DNA of 64,000 nucleotides, taken from the NCBI GenBank assembly GCA_022695795.1, contig MU404143.1, positions 62,001 through 126,000 of the forward strand, given 5' to 3'. Under the pieces are notes generated by a model that saw nothing but the letters and a program-made list of their open reading frames with translations, had not been told where the DNA came from and ran no database searches. The position numbers and the translations under genes were made by a program. Below are positions 29,888-53,436 of the stretch, piece by piece (within the stretch, counting starts at the first letter, position 1; every line of letters begins with the position of its first letter). The DNA comes from Biscogniauxia marginata (Eukaryota; Ascomycota; Sordariomycetes; Xylariales; Xylariaceae).

Positions 29888-32800
29888 TTAATGGAATTCA
29901 CCGTATCGCGGGCCGAAATAGTCACCCTGTTTGACCTTAAGCAGTGTACAAGCATCACCTTCGCACCCCTGACTGGTAACGGTGTTACCCCACCAGTCAA
30001 CGGAGATTTCTGTCCATTGTAAGGAGAAAAATATAATGATAGCAGCGACCGCGACCGCACTACTAAATGATGCCGATAAAACGAAGTTGTACTTAGACCA
30101 CAGTCCCAAGTAGCGTGTCTTAAGGTAAATCCACGAGGCATACGCAATGGGAACCGCCGGCCATATGTAAGACAGATTGTAGGGAGCCCACTGCAGAAAA
30201 AGGAGTTAGTAATTGCTATGTTTGGACTTTTTTTAACCCATGAAACATGTCTTGGGAGCAAAAACTCGTATAAAAAAAGGCCAGAATAGGCAGGTTCTAC
30301 CCCTGAGACAGGCTATCAGAGGCAATAAATAACTCCAATATTAACTTACGCTCAGAGCGCCGTAGAACATGGCAACGGGATGGATCTGCCTCATCCAGGG
30401 CTTATTAAATCTCTTGTTCGTATAGTAGATGATTATTGGGACGACAAAGCCGATGGGAAATCCGGCCAGAAGCCACGTGTACATGCCGCCCTTTCCAAAG
30501 ACCTTTATAGGCCCGACTGTTCCCCATAGAACAGATGCTGTAAAGAACGTGTTTATTCCGGGGCAAGTGAATCGATTCGGTGCGTCCACGGTGCATACGC
30601 CAGAAATCTGGTTCATCTGAAAGTTGAGAACACCTGTGCACTGCAGAAAAGAGAATCAGTAATTGCTATATTCGGGCTGTTTTAACACGTGAGACATGTC
30701 TCGGGAGCAAAAACTCGTATAACAAGCCAGAATAGGCATGTTTAACTCATGAGCCAGGCTATAAGGGGTAATAGAGAACTCCGAAATTAGCTTACTACGA
30801 AGGTGGAAATGAGTGTTCCCACCATCTGTGCGGCAAAGGTCTGGCGCGGCGGTATCTTGATATAATGGGCGAGTTTAAGATCGTTTGAAAACCAAAGAGC
30901 ATCTACGGAAAACAGAAATTAGTACCTGTACTCTCTCCCTCAATCTTAAGTGGCAGCTACTAGAAATATCCAGATCGTGTCGCAAGAGCAAAAGTGGAAC
31001 CGGCTATACATTAATAAGGGGCGCTTCCTGTAAGAATGTAAAATAAACTACTGGGAGTACTTACGTGCACAAACTACGTAGCCGTAACTCTTGAAGTAGT
31101 TCATGGCCAACGCATTGCCTTGGACCCAAGAGCCGCCAATAAACTCGGCGAGAACATTTAACGTAACCTCGACGCCGGTCATGGCCTTAACGATGCCAAT
31201 CGGGATGACGAATAGCGCACAAAGAGCAAGGCCGTAGAATACCACAGCGGGTGACGTGTACGTATCCCATGCTGCTATTCCAGCGCACCCAAAAGCAATC
31301 GCTATCACCTATTGGATGTCTGCTTAGTGTTCAGGGGCCAAAAAGATAACACACCGGTATCGTGTATATAACAACTAGAAAGCAATAGTTATCGCTCTAT
31401 ATCGGAAGAACTTACAAGCACAATAGTGTACCACCATTCGGGCACTTCTGGATAATGGGACATTAAGCGGTTATGAACATCTTGGTACTGCACAAGATTG
31501 CTGTTCTTGTTCTTCCGGAAGCTGTTGATAAGGTTCTTGAATCCCATAATAATCTCGTGGCGGTGGTAAAGATATGCGTATGAGATTATAGCCGCGTAAA
31601 TACCAAAAAAGAATAGGTACACGACCAGGTTACCGGCAGAAAGGAAGGGGAAAGAGTAAGCCTCGTACTTGGCAGCATCGAATAGACCGTGCTCATCTAC
31701 CGCGTTACTAACGTTGTATATCCCGCCCTTATTATCAAATACCCGGTTCGAGTTGATCGGCAGATATGCAGTGTTATACGTGTTAGTATACCAGAACGCC
31801 GCGATGACTGCGGCTGAGATACAGGCACCGATAAACTTGTTAAAAGTGGAAAAAAAGGGAATCATGAGAGGGTCCGTCTGCGTCACGCGCAAAAGTTAGC
31901 AATTACTCTCATCAAAAGCTGAGCTGGTTCCCCGACGACTTGGAGAGACAATTGACACCCCCTTTAGTATATTAGAATCCCCCGCCCTTGGGCCTTGTTG
32001 CTCCTTCTGTCGCTTGTTTCCCAAAAGAACCATAATATGCCCTACACTGACCTGGTCGAAAAGCAAGGTATTCCAGTCCCAAGTGGGCCAGGGGTTTATA
32101 CCAAGCCCATTGTTAAACCCAGCGATAGTATTTAGGTTCAAGTTGTCAGGAGCAATCCAGGTCATCCAGCTAAAGACACTGAGAGCCGTGAAGATGTAGT
32201 TTGGAAACCAGAAATAGACAAACATCGCGGCGAATGTTAAGCCGAAAAACCTGATCCGCGAAATGGTGAAGATCTTGCGGAACGGACCCATAACGGGCGT
32301 GTTGTTATTCTTTTCGTTATGGAAAGCAGCGTTGAGTGCAATCGTCACCAAAGATGCTGGCCAAACACAGTGTGATGGGTACACCAGGAATCGTCGGATA
32401 ATGCCTGCCATACCGTAGCCGATAAAATTCGTACTAAGGGCAATGAGAATCTGATATGAGAATTGACCGGCGTAGCTCTGGTTGAAATAATCTGGCAAAT
32501 ACTGCACCCAGATGATGTTGTTGGTATAAGGGTAATTCCACGACACATTAGCCATCACGGTGATTAGCACTTTGTGAATCAAGTTAGTAATTACAACTTC
32601 TTCTTCATCTTAAGAGCTGGATGGGGGAGGGGGGGGGATCATAGGTGTATTGTTATTAGAGAGGCGTAAGCAGAATTCCTGAAATTCCTTACTATGTTCC
32701 TTTCTCGAAAATGGGCCAGGGTTTAAGCTGTGCCGAACGCCCCAAAGAGTAAAGCCAACATCAGGAAGCAGTTTCTCACACGCTTTCCCTAGAGGATAAG

Positions 32801-33487
32801 CCAACAACTGGGCAACATTTGCCTGGACAGTGATCGGAGGCTTGCGAATCGAGAAAAGTTGATTGATGAAGGCAAGTAAAAAAGAAAACATCATCCCAAG
32901 GGCCCAAGCGCGTAGAGTCCCACAGGGCATGTTCACATCGTCATGATTATCGACAACGGAGCGCACCTCGGCGTAGGGGCTGTTGACCGTGATCAGAGCA
33001 GCCTCAAGCTTCATCTCCTCGATGAGGACAGCATGCTTTTCGGGGCTCTCAAAAATATCGTCGTTGCCTTAAGAGTGGCTAGTTCAGCTCTAATGCTACG
33101 AGAAAGGTCAACCCCACGACACGAAACCTACCTAGGAAGGCCTTGATTTGCTCAATGATGCTGAACGGGAAATTCGGGTCATTCTCGTGGATGGCCAGGA
33201 CATTCTCCATCAAAGGCCGAATTTCTTCGAGGGTTAGCGTGGCAGCGAACTCTTTGGCCTCAACCAGATCATTTTCGGTAACGTTGAGATCCCTAGAAGC
33301 CTAAAGCATCAAAATTGCGTCCTGCAAGTTGGGGGGGAGGGTCCATTGGAATTATCACGGAAACATACGTCTGAACATGGGCGTTTATCGGCACCTCAAC
33401 ATCGCTACTACGATAAATATCTGAATCAGCCTTTTCGTCCACGCCCTGGGACGCAATAGCCTTCTGGCTTTCGACAGTGTCCGCCAT
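29888..33487 (-). CDS. Oligopeptide transporter (OPT family)
   Basis: Nine exons, minus strand: 33487-33369, 33292-33132, 33067-32693, 32569-32052, 31877-31416, 31308-31065, 30902-30796, 30640-30350 and 30190-29888. Phases close to 859 residues, the normal OPT length. Residues 1-120 are cytosolic; then come many hydrophobic membrane segments with OPT landmarks: 'NMPCGTLRAW', 'YPLGKACEKLLP', the 'WNYPYTNNIIW' stretch, 'FDQTDPLMIPFF', 'SYGYVVCAHALWFSNDLKLAHYIKIPPRQTF' (about 35 residues joined across intron 6), 'WGTVGPIKVFGKGGMY' and 'HPVAMFYGAL'. These transporters import tetra- and pentapeptides, glutathione or related ligands with protons at the plasma membrane. Introns 7 and 8 (30795-30641 and 30349-30191) are near copies of each other and of an intron in the glycosidase gene. 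Introns 2 and 3 use AAG acceptors, so those two borders are slightly less certain. Confidence 0.92.
30191..30349 (-). mobile_element. Introner-like element, copy A (intron 8 of the OPT gene)
   Basis: A 159-bp intron, phase 0, exactly coextensive with the repeat: it begins GTAAGTTAATATTGGAG and ends CTTTTTCTGCAG. It contains a perfect TACTAAC branch-point motif near the 3' end. It shares long blocks in the same order with copies B and C, for example (plus-strand reading) 'gagcaaaaactcgtat' and 'ccagaataggcaggttctac'. The exon junction is AGC|TGG. Confidence 0.88.
30641..30795 (-). mobile_element. Introner-like element, copy B (intron 7 of the OPT gene)
   Basis: A 155-bp intron, phase 0, beginning GTAAGCTAATTTCGGAG and ending CTTTTCTGCAG. 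It aligns along its whole length with copies A and C, including 'gagcaaaaactcgtat', 'gccagaataggca' and 'agagaactccgaaa'. It is more diverged than A is from C. The exon junction is GTA|TGC. Confidence 0.87.
30903..31064 (-). mobile_element. Possible degenerate introner-like element (intron 6 of the OPT gene)
   Basis: A 162-bp intron of similar length. The 3' end ('ctacggaaaacagaaattagtac' in plus-strand reading, against 'ctgcagaaaagagaatcagtaa') and a central block ('gtgtcgcaagagcaaaag...ggctata..aataagggg') resemble copy B at matching distances. The similarity is weak and could be partly chance. Confidence 0.4.
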
Positions 33488-36400
33488 GATAGTTGGTGGG
33501 AAACAATCTAACGAGCTCTTGGAGATTAGAGGGGGGAAAGAGTAGCTCAATGCTTTCCAGGGTGGAATGGCATTATAATATAGTTTCAGGCCCAAGTACA
33601 CAGCACACCTTATTATTTCTTCCCCACCTTACGTGGGAAACTCAACGGCAACGTATGGTGTGCAACGTCGGAACGTGAAAGAACCATAAGTTGGCAGAGG
33701 TGTTCCAGACGCGGACACGGTGCCTTCTAGTTTGGGTTCTTGGGAATACAGCAGACAAGGGTCTTGACATCCCGCAGTCGTGACGGGGCTTTGTTATGAC
33801 CCAAAACGACCTTCCATAAGGGGCCGTGCATGCCGAGGACAGATGGTGGTGAGACATCCCACCCTTTCCCGTATCTGAGGGTGATAGGCAAGCCTCGCTA
33901 GTATCATCAGCAGGGGTCTATGTAGAGATCGTGGGGACAGTTTTCGCTTATTGCCATTATCGGATCATTGACGGTCATATTCGGTCTCGAGACTTCGTGC
34001 ATAGAGGGATTGGTTCAAACGAGAATCACTAGAGGGTGGCACTGTCCAAGTCACATTTCTTGGCAGCGAGATGTTATCAACACATAAAATTGTCAGCAGC
34101 GAATCAAAGTAACTGTAATTATTCCCCATGAGTTACGAATTTGCCTAGGTTGGAATCGTGAAGCGTGCGCGGTTGCACAAGCTTGCGTATAAGTCGGGTG
34201 GTGACCTCAATGATCGAGACAAAGAAATGCCGAATAATTGTCCGGATGTGCTGCGCAGGACCGAAATCAAGACCATCGACCAGGGAGAGTGTCTAGGTTA
34301 GGCGTGTCGGCAGCATCCCAGCTGGGTTTGATAAGGGTCAGAACCTGACTTTAGAAGCATTTGTTCTAGCCTTAAACGTCATGAATCCAGGTTACGAGAT
34401 GGCCATACTCCGTACGTAGGTAGCTGGCTATACAGGCCTCATGCGTGCTTGATAGCACCGAATAGAAATCTAACATTTTTGTCAGGAGTGCCGAAGACAC
34501 TCTAACTCTAGACCGGTTTTCCACTTCAAGTAATTTAAAAAGATGAATACATCCCATGTATTACAATGAGGAGAGGGGGGCTGGTGTGAGACGTGTCGTT
34601 GCAAGTCACATACTGTACCCGATGCTCTTGCCGGAGTGGTACTCGGCACGGTCGTAACGGCTCCGTATAATCAACATTGCCATATTGCTAGTCTTATAAT
34701 ATGGTCAGTTTTAACTGCTCACTCCGCTACTGTTCAACGCATAACGAGTCAAACACACGAACTGCTGACAAGGCCAATTGAAGAACCGTCTTTATAGTCT
34801 TGATAGAACGGGATTCTAAACATCTTGTTTATTTATTGCTCACGTCAATCATATTTTGTCGTTTTCTCGTCTTGCAAGACAATTTGGTTGATATAAACGT
34901 TAGCAAGGGGTTTGATGCATACAATGAACCCCGTACCACAATCCTATCTTCAACCCTGGTCGGTGCCGGCCACCACCCGCTCACACAATGCAACCTAGTA
35001 TCCTCTCAGATCATTCGTCGAGATAAGGGGCCCCTGGTCTAGAAGCCTCCAGGTGATAGATAAGTAGCATTACGCGCAAATAAGCTAGGTAAAGGGATCA
35101 ATTTGGAATGTGGATCGCGACCGACGGTCGTTTATACCCTCCCCCTCCCCCAAATTTGAACCATAGGGTCGGAATTCTAATGGGCCATCAGCACACGGAC
35201 TCGACCAGGTTGATTTAGAGTGCTTACTGGTAGGCAAGTTTGCTAGAATGGCAATGCCCCCTCGTGGCGCAGCCATGGTATACGATGTGTACGGATGTAG
35301 CATCAGTCTATCAGTCTTAATCATGACGCCTTACTCTCAGCTCAATTCACGGTATACCTACCTATCTACTGTGTATTGGAAAGCTGGTGGCGTTGGTAGC
35401 ACTCTTACGGCTAAACCTCAATCAACTACCTAATCTAACCGCTCCGTGAGAGCTATTCACAAGGCACCTACTCTGACTTGCCTTATCTATTCGTAGCCAT
35501 CCGCAAATGCTTTCACATATCGGCTAATGAGGATATAGGTCAAGGGTTCAATGTCACACAGGATTCCGTATGCTTGATTAACGTTTCACCCGCGAGGATC
35601 ATAGATTGCCCATCCCAGGTTCGCCTTGTTGTCATCTGCGATTGGCCAGGACTACATTCATAACTGAGGTGCAACATGAACATGTGTTCATGTATGTAGG
35701 CAGGTAGGTAGGCAAGTAGATAGGTAGATATGATATGATATATGATATGACATGGTTTACCATGGCAGGCATTATGTATCCGGCAGGCAATTTCATTGTG
35801 GTACAGCAAGTTAAGAATTTCCATACAGTCGCTGTTCAATACCAAGACACCACAATCTATGCAGACGGGGTTTCGTGGCTGTTAGCCCCAAGCTTCCGTG
35901 GTATTGGTCGTGACCACCAATCCAATTTTCAATCGGCTAGTGTAACCTTCGCATTCCCAGCGTGTCATTGCATAGAACAAGATAGGCTGGGTAGCTTCTG
36001 GAAGCACCGTTGTCCTTGTTCCCAGCGGATAAGTGAGGTGGTTAAAGCAAGCTAGGTGTTACCATGAACATTCTGATTATGAGGTGAAGGCCAAGTATTA
36101 GAAAACAGAGATTTCCAGTACTATATTCAACGCTACATCAAGAGCTTTATGAGGTTTCATAGGGGCGAGCTTGTATAGTACTTTTTATAGCCACTGCATA
36201 AGTTCTCACAGCACGGATTATGTGCATCCGGAATCCCTATTATATTCTATTCGCGATAATTAATTATGTAAATAGCATACATTCGTCTTCATTTCTCAAT
36301 ATGTTCTCTTAAATCATTGTGTCTCGTTTTTGATCACAGTTCCCAATTCTAGGGACTGCAATATATTATCACGATGTCCTGTATGATTTTGTTATGAACG

Positions 36401-36886
36401 GCTTTTTGCATGAGGAGCTAGGACTATAGGTACCCTTAGAGGCGATCTTCTACACATAACACACTCTCTTTGATCATAACTAGCCTTGTATTCATGGCTC
36501 TGCTTACTAGCATGTCCATTGCCCTGCTCCCAACGAAGCTTCTCATAAGATCTCACAACAAATGAATCCTCCTCACGACAGAGTTACCACATCTTCTATG
36601 TGTTGAAACATAGAATTATGAAGTTACTTGATTGAGTGAAGAGACTGTCTGGAGAGCATGAGAGTATACGTTCCTCGTATGGATGATGGTTGATAATGCC
36701 TTGCACCTGTACATGGCATTTGCCCCCTTGACACCTATTTCAGTACTGTATATCTCTGCTCGTGCCGTTCAATATCGACGACACCCCAAAGGGCGCCGCG
36801 CTTTGACTGATAAATCGGCTCTCGCCTAGGAACATTAATAGGGATTTACATATAAAATGAGGTTATTCAATTAATTAAAGTTATTA
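33488..36886. other. Gene-poor region upstream of the oligopeptide transporter
   Basis: About 3.4 kb with no recognised gene. The first few hundred bases left-adjacent to 33488 should be the transporter promoter. Short frames are scattered and share no protein signature. A simple repeat built on 'gtaggcaggtaggtaggca' and 'gatatgatatgatatatga' lies at 35690-35750. AT content rises sharply from 36840. Confidence 0.5.
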
Positions 36887-37245
36887 TTCATATATTATAT
36901 AAACGAGTAAATAAAACAAGCTTATAAATAAAATTGTTTTTTATATAAAATCGGCTTTTTTTAATATTAATAACTTTATTAAAGAAAAATCGAAAAAATC
37001 GAAATTTAAATATATGAAAAAAAAAAACCCCGGTATAATAATTTATAATTTTTATTTTTATTTTTCGCGTTTTCTTTTTACATATTTTAGTTATTATTAT
37101 TTTTCTTTTAGTTAATTTATTTAAATATTTATATAAAGAAAAAGGTCCGATATTTTCCCGACTTTTTTTAATGAAGTAATTAATATTTAAAAAAAACATT
37201 TTATTTATAAGCTTATTTCGTTTATTTATCTATATAATACGTTAT
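36887..37245. mobile_element. Foldback MITE, copy 3 (heavily decayed)
   Basis: About 360 bp bounded by inverted ends: the left 'tatattatataaacgagtaa' and the reversed right 'acgtattatatagataaat'. Both arms then run into 'aaacaagcttataaataaaa' or close variants, the same order of blocks as the MITE at 59183-59595. The inner arm 'tatataaaatcggctttttt' also matches. A minus-strand frame inside it is a by-product of AT-rich sequence, not a gene. AT-rich flank continues to about 37390. Confidence 0.7.
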
Positions 37246-37740
37246 ATTTATAATATTATAATTATATAATTATTAAATATTAAATATCATATTACTTTTT
37301 AATAAACCTCGCTTTATATTAAAACATTTTTAATGTTTATTAAATTGTTTATTAGTTTATAAATAATAATTAATAAATTTATTTAACAAAAGGCGGTAAA
37401 TTTCGATCAAAGAAACTTAGAACGTGGCTTAAACATTAAAGAAGCTTTATAAAGGAATCGTTCTTTAACTGTATTAATCTACCTCTTTATAATCTCAAAG
37501 ATAACTGCATTGAGCAAGAGTAATCCCCGAAGATAAATTAAATCCTTCGCCAGCGTTGCATTGATTTTGATTTTCTTCAACCTTTGAAGCACGTACTCTT
37601 TCCAAACCCGGCTACGAGATAGCCAATTTAGCCAACCGGCCCAGATACTCTTACAGGCAAGTCCTCCTAAATTCAGCACACCACAAGCTTTTCAGAAACG
37701 GAGCAAGCTGGCTTGCCAATATAACCAATATCTATTCAAA

Positions 37741-38874
37741 ATGTTGTTCAACCCAGAATCAGCACCATTCGTACCAACTTTCCCCTCCTTCTCCAAAGAA
37801 CATATCAAAGGTCCCCTATTGGACCCGGAACCAGATGTCACCACGAAATCCCAGCCCCAATCAATTAATAGCCAGCACGAAGTTACTAGATTTTGTCAAG
37901 CAATTTTCTTGTACTATGCATGCGGATGTCGTACCAAGGAGCCCGTATACTGTTGTAAGCCGATCCCTCATTCATATTCTTCAAGTACTCCTGTTGCCTC
38001 AAGATACAATCCATGCGACCATGAAAACATCACGCTAGTAGTTGGCAGTCTACCGTTATCGTGCAAGGATTCAGTTGGTCTCTCTGAGGCCTGTATGGCC
38101 GAAGATCCAGCGGCAAGAGGATTCCTTCGTGAGGCTGACACCGCAGACAAATTGGAGACACTCTTAGTTCTTGGTGAGTGCCCCAAGTCAGACCTAGGAG
38201 CCGCTTTACCGCTCACGGTGGGGAACGGGTCTCTATCACTGGAAGGTGAGATCCGTAACCACTATCAACAAAACCGGAACCCGAGTACTCTCAAGCCATT
38301 ATTGGTTTCCCAGACGCCTACAAGCTCCCATGATCAGGTTCAGAGACGGCTAGAAGAGGAGGAGCTCCCCGGAGACAAGCAAGAGCGGAAAGAGAAAGAT
38401 AGCTCGCCTATAGATATGGACGTCGATACCAATACAGGGATTGAATCCGACACAAACTCCATTGACAATCAATCGATCGAAACTGACGATGACCGAGAAG
38501 ATTTCGACAGTGAGTCACAAGCTTCTGAAGGCAAGTCTAAAGAATCCGAAGGCGAACCAGAAGAATCTTACCAGGAAAGTGAAACGCAAAATATGATGGT
38601 GCGAGATCTCACGAGTGATTATAGGGACAAGTGCGATCTTGATAGCGCCAGTACGGAATTAGTCGTCGATACAGGAAACGACGAAGATGTCACCTTGGAA
38701 GTGGAAACGCCCGACAACGCAGACTATACCATTGATGATGTCGATGGAGTTGCCATAGACGTGATCGATTTCCTGGATAAGAGCGAATTTCATAGCGAAC
38801 CCCGTGATGAGTACCAAGACGAACGGAAATCGACAGAGGGCTTTTGGAAAAAGCTTTCTTTCCGGGTATGGTAA
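37741..38874 (+). CDS. Acidic hypothetical protein with a Cys-rich N-terminal segment
   Basis: A single open frame of 377 residues from ATG 37741. I recognise no named family. Residues 50-92 contain a Cys/His cluster ('FCQAIFLYYACGCRTKEPVYCC...CDHE') of the kind seen in many fungus-specific short proteins, possibly metal-binding. Residues 200-290 and 320-360 are strongly acidic and Ser/Glu-rich, likely disordered. The C-terminus ends in a short basic-aromatic 'FWKKLSFRVW'. There is no signal peptide or membrane segment. It lies 350 bp right of AT-rich repeat DNA and upstream of a broken kinase gene. Codon use and lack of stops suggest it is real and intact. Confidence 0.6.
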   Translation: MLFNPESAPFVPTFPSFSKEHIKGPLLDPEPDVTTKSQPQSINSQHEVTRFCQAIFLYYACGCRTKEPVYCCKPIPHSYSSSTPVASRYNPCDHENITLVVGSLPLSCKDSVGLSEACMAEDPAARGFLREADTADKLETLLVLGECPKSDLGAALPLTVGNGSLSLEGEIRNHYQQNRNPSTLKPLLVSQTPTSSHDQVQRRLEEEELPGDKQERKEKDSSPIDMDVDTNTGIESDTNSIDNQSIETDDDREDFDSESQASEGKSKESEGEPEESYQESETQNMMVRDLTSDYRDKCDLDSASTELVVDTGNDEDVTLEVETPDNADYTIDDVDGVAIDVIDFLDKSEFHSEPRDEYQDERKSTEGFWKKLSFRVW

Positions 38875-39069
38875 ACCATCTACTAACGAGGATTGGCTTT
38901 AGAGCTTGTGCTAGGATTCATTGTTGTTGGGTCTGGCTTGATGTTCATAGTATCGTGCTATAGATAAATAATACGTCGCAGCTTTTTCGTCCTACTTGAT
39001 AGTAAACTAATTCGCATAGTTCATAATGTAAGTTCTCAAATGTAGCGATCTCGAGAGCAATCATCCTTA

Positions 39070-40635
39070 CTACATCAACTGTTCATGGAGTCGCTTGCCT
39101 AGGCTATCCGGCCTGCATCCCTTTTCGATAGCCTCAACCCAGCTCTCCACTAGATCGTAAGCAAATTCATTATCGCAATTCTGCACGGCAGCTTCGTAAT
39201 CCCTTAAGTCTCTAGCGTCACTATTTGCCCATGCCTCCACAAAAGCAGGGCATTGGTATACCATCTCCTTTACGAACAACTGCCGGAGCCGAGTCGTTTC
39301 GTATTGCTTCAGGTCCCTCCAATAGGTTGTTTCTAGCTCACACCGGCCTTCCGTTCCAGTATCGAGGTAGCGTATCATGATTGGCTCGGTGTATCAGTCA
39401 TTCGACTGCTGTAAGAAGGCTGGGAATTGACAAGCCTCGTGAAGAGGCAGGCAAGAAACGCACTGCCAGTCCAGGACACCACATAATATTCCATTCTCGT
39501 CAACGAGGATATTGTCTAGGGAGATATTGTCGTGCCAGAGCATAGTGGGGGCTGGAGTCTTTTCTTTTTGGTTCTCATCCGCCGCCCTTGCTTGGTAGGA
39601 AGATTTAGGTGACGAAAAGAATCGATCTTCGAGCGCCTCTACTCGCTCGATAAGTGCCAGCATCCTCTCGATGATTCTCCGGTCGCCCACATTTTCCAAG
39701 TCCTGCATTCGTGTCATGAGGTCGGAATATGAAAGACGTAGACGGCTACTTGTCCATTCGGAGGCATGAAAGAAAGGCCCGCGGCGGTGATCGAAACAGG
39801 CGCGCTCTCCCTAGAAGAACGCCATGCATGCCATTTCACCAGTCTGGGGTCCAGTGATGGGAGTGGTCGGAGAGGCTGGGTAAATGTTGCCGATTCCTCC
39901 GCGAAACTGCTTCTCGAAAGCTGAAGCAGCATATGCTGCAATTTGTTGGACAATGCGCTCTTTCGCTCCGAAGCTAGTTTCTTTCCAACATTGCGAAAGA
40001 GGAATTCCATCCATTTGACTCATGAGGATCCACTCAAAACTAAGAGGGTTTCTCTGCGAGGAATCGTAGCACTCCACACGTGGGACAGGTAAATTGGTGT
40101 TTTGGTGTATCCAGGCTAACGTGGCAACCTCACTCGTGGTCTGGGTGGTCGAGCAAACGGGGAGAGAGATTCGCATGACGAAATGCTGCTGATCGTATGA
40201 GACACGATAGAGCTTGCTGTAGGTCCCATCATGCATATGTTCTACATGAAATATCTTCTCAGGACCGATCGTCTTCTTGAGCATTGCAATAATAGATTCG
40301 GTTGTTGGCTTTGCAGTCCATTCCGGCCGAAGGGATAAACCGTCCCGAACCCATTTCAGGCCATAGTTTGGGTTGTATTGGCATGGATCTATCGTGAACG
40401 TAGAAGCGGGAGTTTCCGATGTCTCTGTATGAGGTTGAGCTGTATCCGGATAACTACTTTTGCAAGCACCTCTGGGCGATGGTGTTTTGGAACTGGAGAG
40501 GTCGCCAAAGTCGAATTGCAAGTCGGAGCATTCGAACAATGAGTCGTAGGAGGACGAGCGGCTCTGTCTGTTCCTTTCTACGGAGGAATCGCCGGGACTG
40601 CCTTGTATTCGTATGTCATCAACTTGTGAAGTCAT
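39070..40635 (-). pseudogene. Aminoglycoside-phosphotransferase-like kinase, broken by two nonsense codons
   Basis: One continuous minus-strand frame of 522 codons from ATG 40635 to the stop at 39070, interrupted only by TAG at codon 275 (39813-39811) and TGA at codon 414 (39396-39394), without frameshifts. Homology continues through both stops. Residues about 95-250 are the APH N-lobe ('HDGTYSKLYRVSYDQQHFVMRI', read as two parts, and 'PVPRVECYD'). The catalytic loop 'HDNISLDNILVD' and the metal-binding 'GVLDWQ' lie between the stops. The TAG falls in 'MAFF*GER', where family members usually have Trp; TGA in 'SND*YTE' would suit Arg CGA. Both are C-to-T/G-to-A changes, as RIP makes. No splice pair removes the TAG (the only GT-AG around it would be 29 bp). 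A readthrough product is possible but unlikely. Confidence 0.8.
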
Positions 40636-42954: not shown

Positions 42955-43342
42955 ATGTCTTGTGAGGAAGAAAAACTTTCGAGCATCGAGCTTAGCGGGC
43001 TCTTTGGGCGCTAGTCGAGAAACTTGAGGGCAAAGAGAAGAGAAAGTCGGCTAGCCGCTTGCTTGGATGGAGAGCTTATCTTTTCCCATAGGTCTGTAGG
43101 CCGGCTTGGTTGTCTTTTGTGTTGCCTGTCTCATGGAGTGAAAACACAAGACTTCGTTGAGTTGGCAAACTGTATGATATCAAAGCTTAAGATACCATCC
43201 CCTACTACTATTTTCTCCGCCAGTGCTAGTGTATGGCTGTACCTGCTTGCTTCTATCTTATCCCGGCCTTCGAATCGTGTAACTAAGAGTAGCAATATGA
43301 CCGTACGTTCGACATGACCCATCTTATAGCGGCATCATTATG

Positions 43343-45273
43343 TTACTGCCCGCTTGTGTTCCGGCGACTTCTCAATATCTCGGGCTTGCCCACGATCGCC
43401 TCTAATGCTCTGGCTAAACCCGCCTCGTCATACCTCAGCATCCCATCTACCCTACGCCCGTACACCCGTATACAGTCAATGCCCAGTGCAGCTAGCTCCT
43501 CCTTCTGCACCTTAGGCACCCCTTCACCTTCTAGGTAGATGAGGTGCGTGACGTACGTTCTCACTTCCCCTAGGTGCTTCTCCTTCTCGCCCTTCTCGTT
43601 ACCCCACCCGGAAAAGTGGCTCTGGCTCTCGGCAGCCGCCCGCGCGATAGCCCGGACGAAGTCCGCCGCCGTCAGCGGGGCTGCGGCCGGGCCAGTTTCC
43701 CGGTCGACACTCGAGTTGAGAATCAGGATCTTGGGCCGAAGGCGCCATCCACCGGCGGCGATGGCGGCGCCGACCCCGCGCAGCACGAGACTTGGCACCA
43801 GCGACGTGTACAGGCTGCCGATGCTATAGATGATAGCACTCGCGCCCCCGAGCGCCGATACCACTTTAGCGTTCGCCAGCGGCCAAATCTCGTGTCCGTA
43901 CGGGTTGATGTACCAGATGCGCTCGATGCGCGCCGGGAGGTCTTGCTCGCCCTCACTCCCGCTTCCGCTTCCGCCTCCGTCTTCGCCCCCCGACCCTGCT
44001 CCATCGCTAACGCCGCCGCCCTTGCTAAAGTTGATGTACTGTTTGCGCAGCGACGGCAGAGACCCCGGCAGCGTGGCATCCTCGATGCGGTCATGCGCCT
44101 CCGTCTCCCGCTGCAATTTGTCTTGCTGGTACTGGCGAAATGCGCACTTGCCCGTGCTCATGCTCAGCGCCGGGTCATCCGGGAGCGCTGTCGGTGCCGA
44201 CGGGTGCGATATCGCATTCTGTCCTGTGATCTGTGACCCGTCGGCCAGGCTCGCTGAGATATGGTGCGTGAAGTTGCTATTGATGGCTGGCAGGGCGCTC
44301 ACCGTCGGCGGAATGCCACAGATGGCCGAGAGCAGGTAGATGGCCGACTCGAGGGAGCCCGTAAATACCCGGCCCCTGTTAGGAAAAGATGCGAGATTTA
44401 TCTATCAGTTTCGTTACCATCGGGCTTTGACGGAAGAATAAGAACCCAACCCCCCCCCCTCCCCGGCCCTCTGCTTTCTCCTTTTTTTTTTTGACTGCGT
44501 GGCACGAGACTTACGCCCGATGTAAAAAGAAAAGAAGAGGGAGGAAGAGCGGTAGGGATTTAGAGCTGTCCTTACCCGGTCAGGAATAGGTTTCCAATGC
44601 TAGCCTTGGAGAAGTTGAACACGGAGCTAGGTCTAGCACGCTTGACGATCTCAAGGTTCATAAGGTTGAAGATGGACCGGATGAGCTCCCGCTTCTCGCT
44701 AGCGATATTGCTCCAGAGCTCATCCCGCCCCTCGACGATGTCCAGCCATTGGGACCGCGCCTGTAGCGGGTCGGACGACAGGCGATGGTTGAAGAGCTCC
44801 TTGATGGACGCCCGCTCCGCGTCAGTCTTCGAGTCGGGGATCAGTCGGACCAACCTGCCTATTATGCTAAAGTGTCAGCAAACTCAAACAAACCCAGCAT
44901 ACTAACGTGCTTTCACTGATGCCTAGCAGGACTCTACAGAATAATCGTGGGGCTTACTGCGAATGTCGCCAATGCCTATTTCTCAACCAAGTAACATGTT
45001 ACCCCTCATTGTCAGCTCTCAACCTCTGCCAAACAATAATACGGTGCAGATAAGAGAGGGGGGTTGAGTGTAATCGAGAGAAGTGCTTTCCGTACCGGGA
45101 CCGCCAAAGACACGTATCAGCTCTGAAGAGCTCCCACCGTTGTCACTGATAGGTATGATATAGCTGAGCGAGCAATCCCGACTATTTCGGAGTTCCTCAA
45201 ACACGTCGACTAAGCTATTGGTCGCCGTTCCACCACCAAACACCACGATGCCTCTTGGTCTCGTAGTATCCAT
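43343..45273 (-). CDS. CofD / UPF0052 family protein
   Basis: Four exons, minus strand: 45273-45096, 44975-44958 (18 nt), 44858-44576 and 44375-43343; phases close to 503 residues. The N-terminus 'GIVVFGGGTATNSLVDVF' and 'ISDNGGSSSELIRVFGGPGI' (joined at the microexon, then 'GDIRSRLVRL') are the nucleotide-binding signature of the CofD/YvcK group. The later 'NFSKASIGNLFLTGGRVF' and 'AIIYSIGSLYTSLVPSLVL' are further conserved blocks. Residues about 265-285 form a Gly/Ser-rich linker. Bacterial relatives are 2-phospho-lactate transferases (CofD) or YvcK gluconeogenesis regulators; the fungal role is unknown. It is convergent with malate dehydrogenase, the ends 389 bp apart. Confidence 0.9.
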
Positions 45274-45832
45274 GTTGTGGCCTTAACCAACGGTTGGGTG
45301 TATTTTACGGAGCAGAGGAACAGGTTTAGAAACGACAGTGATGGGTGCCTAGAGCGAATTGATCCAGCTGTTCATTTCATTTCACTTCCAAGTGGTTTGT
45401 CTTTTCGAAACTTCAAAGCCACGTGGCTAGTTATGGCATATCCTCAACCCAGGGGGTTGTCGCAAGGGTTGAGCTAGATCGAGTAATAAGGTAGAGTGGG
45501 TGGTATGGAGTCAGGGGAGGTTTAGCCAATCTTCCATCTTCCGATGTTTGCCCGGTCGGTTGGAGATGGATGCGTACGTCGACAGTCCGTCAGATTCAAT
45601 GATCCAGACAACAAAATTATATGCAATTGCTACGGTAAAGTGGCAGAAGTATCATTTCCAAGACATCCTTCACACGCGCATGCACACATACTAGGAATAA
45701 GATTAGAGACTTGTCAATTCCAAGCTACACCATTTATCTCTAGATACAGTAGTCTATACATCATCATCGGCCTAATTCTCACGTAGGTGACGCCGTCCTC
45801 TAAGCCAAAAGTATACTAGGAGATTTCGTCAT
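45274..45832. other. Spacer between the CofD-like gene and the P5A ATPase
   Basis: About 560 bp holding the CofD-like promoter (45274 upward) and the 3' UTR of the ATPase. No gene recognised. Confidence 0.5.
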
Positions 45833-48800
45833 CTATCTTGCCGCTTGAGCTTGAATACGATTAGCCTCGCTCCATTCGAGAATTTTCCGTCTACTCTCCT
45901 CGAGCTTCCTCTCGAACTCCTCCACCTTCGCCAGCCGCTTTCTCTCTTCCTCTGCATCTTTTAGAGCCTTCTCAGCTTCCTTTCTTATCCTCTCACGTTC
46001 TAGCTGTTCAGCGCGCCGGAGCGCGATGTCTCGGGGTCGGTAGTCACTGAAGAGTCGCTTGAGCACTACCTCAATACACCAGCAACCAAAATAGTCAAGA
46101 ACCATAACCGCCGTCATCGTCGTTTTGAACTCGTCTGTGAACTTTACGAGCTTCATTTGTTCGTTAAGCTCTGGGATAAATTCGGTCGAGCAGGAAAAGG
46201 CGATGGCAGTGACACCGATAATGCCATAGAACATGCCTCGATTCTCGGAAAGAGACTCGCGGAATGGCCTGCCTTGGTAGTTCACAGCGAAAGTAGATAT
46301 CTGCTGGATAAGTTGGAGAAGGTACACGGCACTGTTGAGAAGCGAAGGCTGAAATTCGGCTTCCAAATCGACAACCTCCGAACGTCTATAACAATTATTA
46401 GCAGGTATATCATGGACACAGAAACGCTTAGTTGACTTACGGCTCGAGTTTGTCACAGAACCGAGCAACATAAATTAAAGTTGCGATATGAACGGCAAAT
46501 TGACCAAGTATAGACCCGATGATATAGATGTTGAAAATATTTGGCTGAGGTCGCTCCTTGGACAAGCCCTCAACAGATCGAGCTCGCGAAATAGAGAGGA
46601 AGCACACACTCATGAGCATTCCGCTGATAGTGATTTGTCCGTCCCCAAATTTGATTCCTTCAAGGTAAAGAACACTGAGGCTATATGCGCTAATGAGACA
46701 ATTGAGGGCCAGGATCTTGTACATCTGAATTGTCGCGACAAGGGTGCATCGACCTTGACGAATGATATTAGGGATCGCAATGACATTTCGCAATTTACTC
46801 GTGAAGGGTGCAGCAACTGAAGCATCGCCGAGTTTGAGCGTCGGGGGTTCATCATCACCAAGCTCCTGTTCCATCATAGCGCTAGTCATCTTGTCAGCAA
46901 AGCCGGCGGCCTTCTTCATCGACTCTTGCTGTCGCGCCATTCGAGGGTCATTGTTAACCAACTGTTGAGCAGAAGGAGTCGTGACCGTCTCCACATTGGT
47001 ACCGTTCAACCTAGCTAGTTCATGAACAGTGATGCCCTTCTTTTGTGACTCGCGTTCCATCGCCTTAAGATAGTGTGGATTGGATGGTCCAGGAGGAAAG
47101 AGGTGAGCAATCATCACAGGAACGGGTGGGGCAGGCTGGTTAAACCTCTTCATGAGATCGACTTGTTTTTGGTAGAGTTCTTTCATCTTAGCGTTTCGAG
47201 AATGCTCGGCGATTCTTGTCAAGTCTTCCTGGGTGCCATTGAGGAGTGCAATGCCAATGTGTGCCTGCTTTAGAGCACCAACATCATTGGTGCCATCACC
47301 AGCCATGAGTGTGAAATAACCCATATCCTTAAGCCCCAGTAGAATGTCCTCTTTCTGTTTCGGAGAAACGCGAGCATACACCCAGGTATAACGTAGCAGT
47401 GATCGCCAAGCGGATAGATTGCCTTTGAACTTGGCCAAAGCATATCCAGTGACGCAGATATCTTTCGACTCAAGAATTTTGGGATCAATCGGCTTAGACG
47501 TATCGACTTCAATGCTGATCATGTCGTCAACACTCCGCCAGACTAGCTTCTCGCCTCCGTCATTATGTTCTGGGGCATCAAGGATGAGAACGTCCCGGTC
47601 GACAATTTCAACCTCCCGTGCAACATGTACCGCCGTGAGCGGATTGTCCCCTGTAATCATGACAACCCGGTGACTGCTCTCGTTCAACATTTGCACAGCT
47701 TTCTTCGCATCATCTTTGAGGGGGCACTGGAGAACCAGAAATCCAGCAAAGGTAAGGTCAGCTTCAACCTTCTCACGCTTCAAATCATTGATCTTGCCAG
47801 AACCGAGTTCACCCTCAGTAGTCAACTGCTTATAAGCAAGGGCAAGAACACGGGAGCCCCGTCGGGTGAAGTACTTGTAGGTCTCTTCGTAGTCTGCAGG
47901 CACAGTGACAAGCATCTTCATAATGGTCTCTGGCGCACCTTTTACACCGACGAAAGTACCGCGCATCTTATTACCTGTCTTGAGGTCTGTAGCGTTGATG
48001 GTGGCAACTGAACTTTGGCGTTTCAGGGCGGAAGAGAATTGAAACCGGCGTTTGACTTGAACCATACCAGAAGTGCCACCAGCCGCTGTTACAGATGGCT
48101 TAGCTGTGAGGGTGTCATTCTTGCCGAGAGTCCATCCCAGAGAATTCAGAGTGGCTTTCTCCATAGGATCACCTACGATCTCACCCTCGTCGAGTTTGAC
48201 TAGAGCATGCGCTGACGCGAGCACAAGAGTTGTCTCCATGCCAGCTTCTTTGACCAGGGTCATGTGGCTGTGTGCGCCATCAGTTTCTCGAGGCGTGTCT
48301 GTACCAGCGTGGCCGAGGCCCAAACCGGCGATACCTTCGACAACCAGATCCTCGCCCGTCAAAGTCCCCGTCTTGTCGAAACAAGCAATATCTATACGAC
48401 CAGCAAATGGGATACGGAAGGGCTCAGTGCAGAAGATTGCGAACTTAGCTAGAGCTGCAAGGCTCGTATTGACAGCAAGACTAAGTTCCATGGGCAGCTC
48501 GGGAGGCACAACGCTCGTAACAATCAGGATGCAATCCAAGAGTAGTTTGGATCTCTTCCGGTCTTTCTTGACACCCTCGTCCCAGACATACCAAGAGGCA
48601 GCCAGTGCGAAAATCAGCAGGAACAGAATGAAGAGCAGCGCCTCAACGTTGTTTGCAGATACGCGCTCAGTCGAGTAGATCATGGTTCTGACTAGATTAC
48701 CCTGTGACGTCTCGAAACCGGTCTTTATGACAATAGCCATAGCGCCATAATCGGGAGCAGCGGGAACCCCTGAGGCCAGCTTTAGCTTCTCCTCTTCGGG

Positions 48801-49936
48801 ATTACCATGTGTAACCTGTAGGACTTTGGTGCCGCCCCATAGGAAGGCGTTTTTATCAAGACCCTCGGTATCGATATGCGCATCTCCGGGGCGTAATTGG
48901 ACAGAGTCTTTCAGCAACGGTGTGCTTTCACCAGACAACATTGCTTCGTTGACGATGGCGGCACCTTCGACCAAGAGCATGTCACACGCAACACCGCTAT
49001 CCTCTTTGGTGCGCCCGACGGAAACGAGATCACCGGGAAGTAGTCTATCGCTCTGGATCTCGGTCCACTTACCCAGGCGATAGACCCACACGTCGTAGGG
49101 CTTGATACTCATGCCGCGGAACTCGTACAGGGTCCGCTGCCGTTGCCATACGACAGTACTCTCAAAGGCGACGAGCATAAAAAGAGTGAATAGGGAGTAG
49201 TACCAGTATTCGTCCAACATCCAGAGCCCGACACAGAAGACCTGGAAAACGAAGAAAGGAGCGACTGCATGTTCCCGGAAGAGTTCCGTAAAGGTGGGCA
49301 CGGGTATATCGAAGGTGTTTGTGCCATAGTGTTGTTCGAGTCTGTTTATTTCAGCCTGGCTGGTAATGCCTTTCGACTGCTGGAAATGTTCGATCTTAGG
49401 TTTCGGCTCGGCATCGATACCGTAGGTCAGGGGACTAAATGACTGTTGCGCAGGGTCGTAGAGGAAACGGCGCTTTTGGAACAGGAACGACAAGTTCGTC
49501 TTGTCACCAACCTATAGAAAGACGTTACGGGTTAGTTTGGGCTGGGGATCGAGTGAGTCAACAGATGCGGAGGAAAGGGTACCTTCTCGCGGTTGATAGT
49601 GCAGATTTCGGCAGAGCCGGCGTTGGCGATTGGAATGACCTTGATCAACTGGGCTTCTTGGACATTCTTGGCCTTGGTCGCAGTGAAAGACGCTTTCAGG
49701 TTGACACTCCAGTTTGTGCTGAGCCAGACCAAACTCTGAAGAGTGATGATAGTAGCCAGCCATACGAAAGTCCACTCGGACGAAGCAATGTACTTCTCAT
49801 ACAACTCGGGGGTGTAGAAGTATCGGGCAAAGATGGGCCATATTATGGCGAAAGGCCAGATATATGCGTGGAGGTAGATGGGGAGCGGCGAGAGCAGCTC
49901 GGCGCCCTTGATCTGAGAATTGTCGACGAGAGCCAT
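45833..49936 (-). CDS. spf1: P5A-type ATPase of the endoplasmic reticulum (Spf1 family)
   Basis: Three exons, minus strand: 49936-49583, 49511-46441 and 46385-45833, with introns of 71 and 55 bp; 1325 residues. It has the full P-type ATPase plan: N-terminal membrane helices, actuator loop 'LSGESTP' (about 310), the P5A-specific 'VVPPELPMELS' in the M4 region (about 453-463), phosphorylated Asp497 in 'DKTGTLTG', 'MITGDNPLTA', and hinge 'MAGDGTNDVGALKQAHIG'. C-terminal helices are followed by a charged coiled coil (last 80 residues). P5A pumps act as ER dislocases that remove misinserted tail-anchored and signal-anchor proteins and affect ER lipid and glycosylation homeostasis. An insert before the last membrane block carries 'TVTTPSAQQL' and acidic stretches, typical of fungal members. 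Confidence 0.96.
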
Positions 49937-50602
49937 TTGATCGACTCTTACAAAATGGCAACACTCATCGAGAGCATTTGAAGGGGTAGGGGAGAACAAG
50001 AATTATCATCCAAGTCCAGAAATGTTGCCGCGAGCATTTGCTGGTCGCTGTTTATTGCATGTATGTTGTCGTGGTTTTGTGAGTGGTACAAAGTTTCTTT
50101 ACTTACCTAAATCTTAGGTAGACTAAGACAGATCACTGCCAGCGACCGACGGGTGGCAAAGCCCAGATATGCAGCTGTTGACGGCCCGGTTAATCGTATT
50201 ATCGGAGGCTTAAATGGTTTAGTTTAATACACCTTTTTAAAGATTATTATAATTATTTAAACTTTATAAAAAGATATTTTATTTATTTATTTAAATAAAT
50301 AAAAAAGAGGATGGTTTAAAATAATATTATAAAGTTTTAATATAAAAATAGTTAAACTTTTATTCTCCGTATAAGTAGGTTTACATATTAGGTACAGCCG
50401 GGCTGTTAGTAGTAAGTATATACCAGATACCTAGTAGGTAGTACTGTACCAGATATAATGTTAGCAAGTAAAGCTAAATATCGTCAATATTTATGCAGAG
50501 CTCTCAAACACCTCCAAGTTCTTTTTATACCTAATATGAGCTTTCGAAGTCCAATTGTTCAGCTTTTGATTCCTATCGATCAAACAAGTATATACATCGA
50601 CA
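49937..50602. other. Spf1-type gene promoter and small AT-rich patch
   Basis: The left part is the promoter of the ATPase. 50210-50380 is a short patch of extreme AT content ('tatttatttatttaaataaataaa'-like), resembling RIP-decayed repeat but too short to place in a family. TAGGTAG-type motifs occur at 50385-50450. Confidence 0.5.
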
Positions 50603-53436
50603 TCAAAACAACGTCAGGGTCTCCAACCTGATTTCCGCACTATCCGAGCCTCCCTTCAAGCTGACATAATTTTTTCCTACCGCGAGCGTGACACTAGCCG
50701 TAGCGTTGAGATACTCCCCCTGTGACGGTAATAAGCGGATGCTAGTTTGTATTACCCTGTTGACCTCGATACTCAAGCTCGCGGCCGCGTTCCCGGAATT
50801 TGAGTAGCTGAGTAACAGAGTACTCGGTTTACCGTCTGACACAATGCCTGAAAGGGCTACAGTACTGTCCGATCTCACACCGCCGACTACAGCTCCGTTC
50901 GCTGTTGCAGTTGACGAGTTATCGAAAACGATGCGAGTTTTAGTTCCAGTTAGATAAGCGTCGACTGCATAATACATAGGGCCATATTCTGGCGGTGTCC
51001 AAACTTCCAGCTCGCAGATTCCGACGAATAGTTGTTGAGACTTTCGATACATGTTGACGGCCAGGAACTCCGTCTCAACTGGATCAAAGTCTATGTGATT
51101 GCGGTCGTTTGGTAGCAATTTCGCACTATCATTATACGCAAAAATCAGGCCGCTATTACCGTATACTTCGAAGCTGGATGGCACATCAATTCCTCCTCCC
51201 CGAACGACATCTGAGTACAAAGCTATCGTAACAGACGACACGTTCCTCGGTCGCGCAAACGTGATCGTAAGCGTGTCGTTCATGTTTGGAGACCCATAGT
51301 TAGTCCACCTATTGTCAGGTATATCGTCATAAAACAAAACACCATCGATAGCCTTGTAAAAGTGGTCTGCGGGGTTGGTGAATGTCGCATTAGCCATAGG
51401 ATACTGACTAGGCCCCGCGGGATTTGCCGCGATATTTATCAGAGCATCGCCTTGTAGGATGGGCGGGGGTACAGGAACCGTAACAGTTTGTCCTGCACCG
51501 TTATGTACCTTACTACCATCCACAAATACCGTCAGTCCCTTCCCAACGCCATACCTAGAGCCATATTTATCGTAAAGTACAGTGACTAAATGGCCATGGT
51601 ATGGAAGATTCTCTAGAGCGAGGTACGTCCAGTTCCCAGGAATAATAGGCGAGATGTGAAGAGTGTTATCTGGCTGCGGCAGGATGCCGAATAGGCCCGT
51701 AATAACATCGTCATTGTTAGTCGAGTGAGCATAGTGCTCAGAATGATTCCAGCCATCAGCACTCCACGAATCCTCAAAGGGGTAGTGAGATTCGGCTACA
51801 TATGGGTGTCCAAGCTTCATCTGAGTTCGTGCGTACATGTGGAGGTAGTAATAATATTGGTTTGCTGTGACATTGGTAGTTCCGGCATGAAAGATAGCCG
51901 CAAGGGACTTCAAGGTGTGACTAGTCGAGAATGGCCACGACATCCCATTCCAATAACAGCCTGGAAAGGGGTTAGTGATGCTCAATGCTCTATTCTCTTC
52001 CTCATCATCCCAAGGCCAACTTGGAGTTCTAGTAGAGGGGTAAAATACAGTATTCGTTTGGACGCGTAGCCATGAACCAAGGGTCGCGAATCTCCAGGGT
52101 GGTTGGGCCAAATGGTGAAAGGAAGCCATTTGTATCAAACAGAGAATCAACCGCAGGTTGAGCGTAAGACTGATTCAGGCCGATGCCGAAGCGGTATGGG
52201 AATAACCCAACCTGTTCCCTTCCAGAGAGACGTGTCAGGTTCGGATTACCAGGGCGGATGATATCCATAAAAAACTGTTGCTCAGTGGCCCACATTCGCT
52301 TGTACATGGCATTTTCGATGTCCTCTGCCAATTTGGTGAATCTCGCCTCGGTAAAGCCATCGCGTGCGAGGTTAGCGGCTCTAGCAATAGCCCTGGCGTT
52401 CGCAACCATATAGGCATTATGACTCGGACGAAAGGTGTCAGGACCATCTTTCCTCAAGTCCCAATCGGTATTATTTGGGTCGGCCGCGAAACCGGGGAGG
52501 GACAGCTCCTGAGCATCCCAGACAGGTTGGTAATAGTACAAGCCACTGCAGAAAAAGGAGTCAGTAATTGCCATTATTTGGACTGTTTTTAACCCACAAA
52601 ATATGTCTCAGGCGCAAAAGCTCATACAAAATGCCAGAATAGGCAGGTTCTACTCCTGGGACTGGCTATGAGAGGCAATAAATAACTCCAAAATTAACTC
52701 ACGCTACCTTGTCAAATACTTCGTCCCACTCATGCCATATACGAACCATGTCGTTAAGTTGATTAGATAGAAATTCCCAATCCCCAGTGACCATAGCGCG
52801 ACGGCTCGCGGCATCTAAGATCCACTGAGTATACTGCAACGCGTCACCCGGCCCACGAGTATAGAGCTGGATATAATCATCTGCGAAGAAGATGTTCCTT
52901 AACCATCTCGCCTCGTCGATATGATGGCCAGCAGCAGCATCGATAGAGCCAAAGGCCTTCGCATAGCCGACTGGCTGCACGAATTCTGAGAACATATAGC
53001 CAGTTCCAGGCCTAATATAACGAAGGTTCCGTTGGATTGATGTCCATCTATAGTAGTATACATCTTGGACAAGGGAGTCAGGAAGATCGATGAAGGGAAT
53101 GTTGTCTCTCAAGAAGGACGCGCCAGCAAGACCACTAATAAGCTTCTCGTGGTTGAGAAACGAGGTGCCCCTAACCTCTATTATCCGGGGGCGTGAGGTC
53201 TTCTGGGCGAAGGCGGTGTATGCGAGCAAGAGTAGGGCTCCAATAGCCAAGATAACAGCAACTATCTTGTGAGGCAAGCAGTTGGCCTTAGACAGCAGGT
53301 TACCTTGCAAACGGTCATCCCGACCCTTTGACATCCTACGGTCGCCGGCATGTTTAGCATTCTCCAGACCGGCTGAGAACGGCAAGTTCAATAAAGAGGT
53401 CTTGAAAGGTTGCTGTGCCATTAGTTGTGCTAACAT
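50603..53436 (-). CDS. Membrane-anchored six-hairpin glycosidase-like protein (MGH1/GH63-like)
   Basis: Three exons, minus strand: 53436-52703, 52545-52049 and 51960-50603; phases close to 862 residues. Residues 1-55 are cytosolic and basic, and about 57-77 form one membrane segment ('VAVILAIGALLLLAYTAFA'), a signal anchor placing the rest outside. The (alpha/alpha)6 barrel spans about 90-530 with 'YYYRWTSIQRNLRYI', 'ASGLYYYQPVWDAQE'-like and 'ATRPNEYCCYWNGMSWPFST', the last restored only when the 88-bp second intron (donor GTATTT, branch CACTAAC) is removed. Beyond it, about 555-690 resembles a galactose-binding (F5/8-like) fold. The barrel resembles mannosylglycerate-hydrolase/GH63-type enzymes; substrate unknown. 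Intron 1 is an introner-like copy shared with the oligopeptide transporter gene. Confidence 0.82.
52546..52702 (-). mobile_element. Introner-like element, copy C (intron 1 of the glycosidase gene)
   Basis: A 157-bp intron, phase 2, beginning GTGAGTTAATTTTGGAG and ending CTTTTTCTGCAG. It aligns end to end with OPT intron 8 (copy A): for example 'ccagaataggcaggttctac' and 'gaggcaataaataactcca' (plus-strand reading) are identical in both. The host gene is unrelated to the transporter and 20 kb away. The exon junction is AGC|TGG, the same as in copy A. Confidence 0.9.

What the first reader, a model, noticed from the sequence alone, without database searches (positions are those of the whole stretch)
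30191..52702. Multiplying introns: three near-copy 155-159 bp introns in two unrelated genes
Seen: OPT introns 8 (30349-30191) and 7 (30795-30641) and glycosidase intron 1 (52702-52546) align end to end. Blocks such as 'ccagaataggcaggttctac' (A and C) and 'gagcaaaaactcgtat' (A and B) are identical. The repeat boundaries coincide exactly with splice donor and acceptor, and all end in CTGCAG preceded by a T-rich tract and a CTAAC/CTGAC branch site. Known: introner-like elements were described in some Dothideomycete fungi and in certain algae. Inference: an active or recently active introner family in this genome, probably present in many other genes.
Basis: partly seen in the sequence, partly recalled or inferred. 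Interest (0 to 1): 0.9.

Follow-up and report, generated by a model that had tools for sequence, protein, structure and literature searches.

The report
Self-multiplying intron family in Biscogniauxia
A fungus carries dozens of copies of the same short intron, each set seamlessly into the coding part of a gene at a preferred four-letter site, which gives a clean case for asking how genomes gain new introns.

Summary
In detail: three 155-159 nt introns (window 30349-30191, 30795-30641, 52702-52546, minus strand) align from donor to acceptor at 77-85% identity. Deposited Biscogniauxia marginata proteins splice out all three, so the genome is that fungus (Xylariales), not a Dothideomycete. Genome scans give at least 76 copies; 60 of the 75 measured are 150-165 nt, the longest 216. 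In 51 copies with long flanks, removing the intron leaves 30 or more open codons on both sides in 47, against 26 and 19 for frame-shifted joins. No target-site duplication of 3 nt or more occurs in 75. Two features differ from the fungal introners I could read about: a sharp target, YR^TS (55 of 75 against 3.3% background), and a consensus symmetry that runs from the donor to just before the branch point. The tree is star-like and the closest pair differs by 4.5%, so present activity is not shown. Best reading: a fungal introner family copied in the transcript sense by a sequence-choosing, probably RNA-linked process. The mechanism is unproven; RNA-seq and sister genomes were not available.

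The parts
30191..30349 (-). Introner copy A (OPT intron 8), 159 nt, junction AGC|GTAAGT...CTGCAG|TGG, phase 0
   Evidence: spliced protein identical to deposited protein
30641..30795 (-). Introner copy B (OPT intron 7), 155 nt, junction GTA|GTAAGC...CTGCAG|TGC, phase 0
52546..52702 (-). Introner copy C (glycosidase intron 1), 157 nt, junction AGC|GTGAGT...CTGCAG|TGG, phase 2
29888..33487 (-). Host gene 1: OPT oligopeptide transporter, 9 exons, 859 aa, deposited as B. marginata protein
50603..53436 (-). Host gene 2: six-hairpin glycosidase-like protein, 862 aa, deposited as B. marginata protein
32570..32692 (-). OPT intron 3, 123 nt, possible strongly decayed relative (junction CATA|...|TGCT also fits YR|TS); weak
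   Evidence: global alignment z = 2.2 against shuffles, the highest of six OPT introns tested; below threshold

Best explanation
These are members of an introner (introner-like element) family of Biscogniauxia marginata: ordinary GT-AG spliceosomal introns of about 156 nt that multiplied into at least 76 sites, nearly all of those testable being coding. Shown: end-to-end similarity bounded by the splice sites, seamless joins with no target-site duplication, placement in the sense of an open host frame, and a preferred target YR^TS (insertion between R and T). Inferred: excised intron RNA, held by inverted-repeat arms that run from the donor to just before the branch point, is written back into transcribed DNA or into mRNA followed by recombination. 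A component with sequence preference chooses YR^TS sites. One or a few master copies gave a burst whose products have since diverged independently. Which enzyme writes the copy is not known.
For: Pattern scans with up to 3 mismatches gave 53 (3' end), 63 (5' end), 43 (middle), 33 and 27 matches, with the reversed-pattern control 0 each time. The union is 75 plus one more = 76; the last two scans added 1 of 33 and 0 of 27. Genic and sense: 47 of 51 joined frames open at least 30 codons on both sides, against 26 and 19 of 51 for frame-shifted joins and 4 of 51 unspliced. The longest joined frame is on the intron's own strand in 49 of 51. In 10 of 10 translations sent to Pfam (picked from 42) a domain match crosses the junction. 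No TSD: 0 of 75 flank repeats of 3 nt or more, 3 of 75 of 2 nt. Target: YR|TS in 55 of 75 against 258 of 7914 background positions, P = 7e-65; T at +1 in 71 of 75. Among 21 ordinary intron candidates 1 has YR|TS and 7 have T at +1. Symmetry: consensus against its own reverse complement z = 5.0, 0 of 500 shuffles as high, spanning consensus nt 1-138. Star-like tree: 11% of tree length is internal.
Against: No RNA-seq was read; splicing rests on frames and on three deposited junctions. No sister genome could be searched, so gain rather than loss is inferred from spread over unrelated genes and from distant OPT paralogues that read through both OPT positions in one frame (38% and 31% identity); a third paralogue match carries a stop. 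The RNA fold is not backed by covariation: 91.4% of cells paired, the same as column shuffles; slid versions pair less (26-51%), which is expected because the structure came from the consensus. RNAalifold found almost no consensus fold (-0.53 kcal/mol). Individual copies are only weakly symmetrical (mean z 1.7 over 60 copies) and weakly folded (mean z -1.85 over 51). YR^TS is not a proto-splice site (AG|G), so plain reverse splicing does not predict it. Four of 51 copies (L002, L013, L035, L040) have fewer than 30 open codons on one or both sides, and the 24 copies fetched later were tested only on 60+60 nt, where shifted joins do almost as well (24 against 21 and 18).
Confidence: 0.6

Rival explanations
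1. Non-autonomous DNA element: an inverted-repeat (foldback or MITE-like) DNA transposon whose ends happen to be splice sites, moved in trans by a sequence-specific transposase or nuclease that inserts without duplicating its target.
For: Strong short target motif centred on R^T; imperfect inverted-repeat arms; introners elsewhere mostly show DNA-transposon marks (PMC9860276, results section read).
Against: No target-site duplication of 3 nt or more in 75 copies. The right arm ends 18 nt short of the element end, by the branch point. The longest joined frame is in the sense of the intron in 49 of 51, and 47 of 51 sit in open frames, although the pattern scans were blind to genes. Both termini were scanned genome-wide at 3 mismatches, and the 75 copies read from it are 88-216 nt; an element with more diverged ends would have been missed.
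Confidence: 0.25
2. Rolling-circle (Helitron-like) origin: seamless insertion between A and T without target-site duplication.
For: A|T in 46 of 75 copies against 5.4% background, R|T dominant, no TSD of 3 nt or more.
Against: The ends (GTRAG... and ...CTGCAG) lack the TC start and CTRR end with 3' hairpin expected of canonical Helitrons (recalled, no call). The Helitron_like_N search found nothing, but its control genomes were silent too, so that is uninformative.
Confidence: 0.05
3. Old introns kept alike by gene conversion, not newly gained.
For: Two copies share one OPT gene 450 bp apart, and two lie 706 bp apart in what looks like one polyketide-synthase gene.
Against: 76 copies on 49 contigs, with ten sampled host genes of different families; cluster mates are not each other's closest relatives in the 7 of 8 pairs that the tree holds; shared target motif at the insertion point.
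Confidence: 0.02

Closest known systems
Introner-like elements (ILEs) of Dothideomycete fungi (Collemare et al. 2015, PMC4457414: abstract and passages seen)
   Same: Spliceosomal introns present as many similar copies in unrelated genes; they degenerate with time.
   Different: Described there as hundreds of near-identical copies; here at least 76 copies with the closest pair 4.5% apart. An AG/GY preference is attributed to Dothideomycete ILEs (second hand, PMC8469720 discussion); here the site is YR^TS. Different class of fungi.
[quoted passage not shown])
   Same: Same order (Xylariales), seamless insertion in coding sequence, no target-site duplication, internal inverted symmetry that fades in more divergent copies, unknown mechanism.
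   Different: Those are twin introns starting GGT, or shorter derivatives (93 nt in one example) with a TTTCTAGAAA palindrome, and their junctions show no sequence preference. Here they are single canonical introns of ~156 nt, none of 75 with that palindrome, with a strong YR^TS site, and the symmetry ends before the branch point.
[D1,2] stwintrons with NTIRE-10 stems in 14 Xylariales (PMC12403724: abstract, first part of results and passages seen)
   Same: Near-terminal complementary RNA segments; no TSD.
   Different: Integration sites reported as seemingly random; the 3' element lies between branch point and acceptor there, upstream of the branch point here. The words Biscogniauxia and Graphostromataceae do not occur in that main text.
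Introners of Gozashti et al. 2022 (PMC9860276: abstract and results section seen)
   Same: Ascomycete families there also lack TSDs and TIRs by their criteria.

Membership tests
Introner (sensu Gozashti et al. 2022) | Group of introns (5 or more) whose similarity extends to both splice boundaries | tested here: met
   51 loci aligned from donor to acceptor; 76 places in all
Introner (sensu Gozashti et al. 2022) | Copies lie in genes and are spliced | tested here: met
   Frames (47 of 51), Pfam across 10 of 10 junctions, three deposited junctions; no RNA reads were examined
Introner (sensu Gozashti et al. 2022) | New intron positions absent from relatives | not testable with these tools
   No other fungal genome could be searched; only OPT paralogues at 38% and 31% identity read through both positions
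Fungal introner-like element (Dothideomycete type) | Stable or symmetrical intron structure (as cited in PMC8469720) | tested here: inconclusive
   Consensus symmetrical and folded (z -3.5), but copies weak, RNAalifold near zero and covariation no better than shuffles
Fungal introner-like element (Dothideomycete type) | Preference for AG/GY insertion sites (as cited second hand in PMC8469720) | tested here: not met
   Junctions are YR|TS; AG|TG once in 75, and no AG|GY
Hypoxylon sister stwintron family | GGT start with nested internal intron; TTTCTAGAAA palindrome; random junctions | tested here: not met
   -1 is G in 16 of 75 only; palindrome in 0 of 75; junction motif strong
Cut-and-paste DNA transposon (MITE) | Target-site duplication | tested here: not met
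   0 of 75 with flank repeats of 3 nt or more; 3 of 75 with 2 nt
Helitron | 5' TC, 3' CTRR with hairpin (recalled) | tested here: not met
   Donor end GTRAG in 74 of 75 and acceptor end CTGCAG in 53 of 75

The most novel reading that the evidence does not exclude
An unrecognised intron-writing activity with DNA or RNA sequence specificity: it places whole introns, without loss or duplication of a base and only in the transcript sense, at YR^TS sites, and it reads an inverted-repeat signal that starts at the donor and ends by the branch point, the two places joined in the lariat. If so, fungal intron gain is site-directed and not a random by-product of splicing.
Probability: 0.3. Interest if true: 0.88.

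Novelty: new variant of a known kind. Interest (0 to 1): 0.62.

Why it matters
How ascomycete introners spread is open: they lack the marks of DNA transposons, and reverse splicing has been proposed without a target rule that I could find. A family with a sharp insertion motif and a symmetry tied to donor and branch point gives concrete, testable constraints on the machinery. It also adds canonical-intron introners in a genus of the Xylariales, the order in which proliferating stwintrons were described.

Tried and rejected
Gene conversion of old introns: disfavoured by copy number and gene diversity. Autonomous partner with the same ends: the 75 copies read are 88-216 nt; ends with more than 3 mismatches would escape the scans. 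Helitron: PF14214 gave nothing, with an uninformative control. Conserved RNA fold: RNAalifold -0.53 kcal/mol, and explicit pair counting no better than shuffles. A smooth series of decayed copies: a two-ended matrix scan of the window and ~161 kb of fetched loci found only known full copies; OPT intron 3 is a weak candidate (z 2.2). Local copying as cause of clustering: in the 7 of 8 close pairs held by the tree, mates are not neighbours. TSD 'AGT' at both junctions: the A|GT...AG|T pattern looks like a 3-nt direct repeat, but splicing would then lose one base of the original frame, and the tryptophan codon at copy A needs its own T (argument, not a call).
Full report
OBSERVATION. The similarity stops at the donor and acceptor. 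Splicing gives an 859-aa OPT transporter and an 862-aa six-hairpin glycosidase. Both are identical over their whole length to deposited proteins of Biscogniauxia marginata whose contig is 178,106 bases long, and the window's contig has the same length. The organism is therefore B. marginata, Xylariales, Sordariomycetes.

COPY NUMBER. Pattern scans of the 5' end, middle and 3' end (3 mismatches allowed, reversed-pattern control zero each time) raised this to 75. A scan of a fourth segment matched 33 places, 32 of them known; the new one (L077) is a full copy with flanks CA|TC. A subfamily 5' scan added none of 27. The total is at least 76; more diverged copies can have escaped. Over 75 copies the median length is 156 nt, range 88-216, with 60 of 75 at 150-165. 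The shortest carry internal deletions or, in L072, an unrelated 3' half.

GENIC, SENSE, SEAMLESS. For the 51 copies with 1.5-kb flanks, the join leaves at least 30 open codons on both sides in 47, against 26 and 19 when the join is shifted by one or two bases and 4 without splicing. At least 50 codons: 42 against 16, 11 and 1. The four that fall short at 30 are L002, L013, L035 and L040. For the 24 copies fetched later, all 24 joined 60+60-nt windows are open, but the shifted controls are open in 21 and 18, so this adds little. The longest joined frame is on the intron's own strand in 49 of 51; the exceptions are L012 and L040. Ten translations, picked by eye from 42 for recognisable proteins, were sent to Pfam and in all ten a domain match spans the junction; that choice is biased. 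OPT paralogues in the same genome read through both positions in one open frame (C58, 38% identity, query 1-201; C80, 31%, query 2-177). One at C36 carries a stop, and one at C23 matches in two pieces. They are distant, so gain at the OPT sites is likely but not proven.

TARGET SITE. Over 75 copies: T at +1 in 71, C or G at +2 in 72, A or G at -1 in 65, C or T at -2 in 64. YR|TS holds in 55 of 75 against 258 of 7914 positions in the flanking exons. Information is 1.88 bits at +1, 0.69 at -1, 0.65 at +2, 0.41 at -2, 0.27 at +3 and under 0.1 at the other positions shown (-8 to -3, +4 to +8). Ordinary intron candidates found by a strict screen of the window and fetched loci show YR|TS in 1 of 21 and T at +1 in 7 of 21. 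Flank direct repeats: 3 of 75 of 1 nt, 3 of 75 of 2 nt, 0 of 75 of 3 nt or more. Intron phase among the 47 with clear frames: 25 phase 1, 12 phase 0, 10 phase 2. The motif is not the proto-splice site AG|G. At copy A the +1 T begins the tryptophan codon of the nearly invariant W760 of the OPT alignment (16 proteins), so that T was most likely in the target before insertion.

STRUCTURE. The consensus matches its own reverse complement from nt 1 to nt 138 (z 5.0, 0 of 500 dinucleotide shuffles as high). The donor GTAAGCTA faces TAGC(AA)TTAC, which ends at the branch motif CTGAC; the last 18 nt lie outside. Single copies are weaker (24 of 60 with z > 2, mean 1.7). The predicted RNA fold is modest (mean z -1.85 over 51 copies, 22 below -2, consensus -3.5). 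Pair counting on 49 sequences shows no covariation beyond column shuffles. So the symmetry may be inherited from an ancestor and fading, as reported for Hypoxylon sister introns (PMC8469720, discussion).

AGE AND ORDER. In 69 alignable copies the nearest-neighbour distance has a median of 11.3% and a minimum of 4.5%; distance to consensus has a median of 9%; internal branches make up 11% of tree length. This looks like a burst from one or few masters followed by independent decay. No near-identical copies were found, so current activity is not shown. Copies are clustered: 8 pairs within 10 kb against 1.2 expected (0 of 2000 simulations as high; the null ignores contig ends and gene density). 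All 5 pairs within 5 kb, and 5 of 8 within 10 kb, have the same strand. Cluster mates are not nearest relatives in the 7 of 8 pairs that the tree holds; L076 was too short to place. That points to shared susceptibility of genes or regions.

MECHANISM (inference). Seamless, sense, exonic insertion speaks for a link to transcripts. The arms ending at donor and branch point fit a function in the excised intron RNA. The YR^TS rule needs a sequence-choosing step that plain reverse splicing does not supply. A DNA element with a TSD-free integrase remains possible.

LITERATURE. No paper in the held library contains both 'Biscogniauxia' and 'introner'. The term 'introners' from 2023 on gave 11 papers; by titles and abstract openings none concerns this family. 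Of 46 papers with two of 'helitron', 'introner', 'intron gain', 20 were listed, and one of those (on MSH1 genes) holds both 'helitron' and 'introner' (not read). Most subscription papers are not in the library, and supplements could not be opened.

Noticed in passing
Genome G000, clusters on C3:504896-514609, C5:11718-14887, C5:779616-785960, C159:47956-52118, C193:30414-31274, C89:92191-92795: Copies are locally clustered (8 pairs within 10 kb against 1.2 expected) although cluster mates are not close relatives where placed.
   Followed up: partly
L045 and L046 (G000 C193); L017 (C141); L009 (C24): Several copies sit in genes that look like polyketide synthases (acyltransferase domain in L017; others by eye); two lie 706 bp apart.
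   Followed up: partly
L021 (G000 C80:49104-49259): A second OPT transporter gene carries a copy at another place (OPT domain across its junction).
   Followed up: partly
L054, L055, L056, L069: Some copies have runs of T inside the intron (longest 15, 28, 8 and 9), apparently homopolymer growth.
   Followed up: no
L072 (G000 C71:45393-45480): An 88-nt intron whose 5' half is the family and whose 3' end is unrelated: an introner cut down or fused to another acceptor; its junction CG|CT no longer fits YR|TS.
   Followed up: no
window 50220-50350: A stretch of 90% A+T beside the glycosidase gene, possibly a mutated repeat.
   Followed up: no
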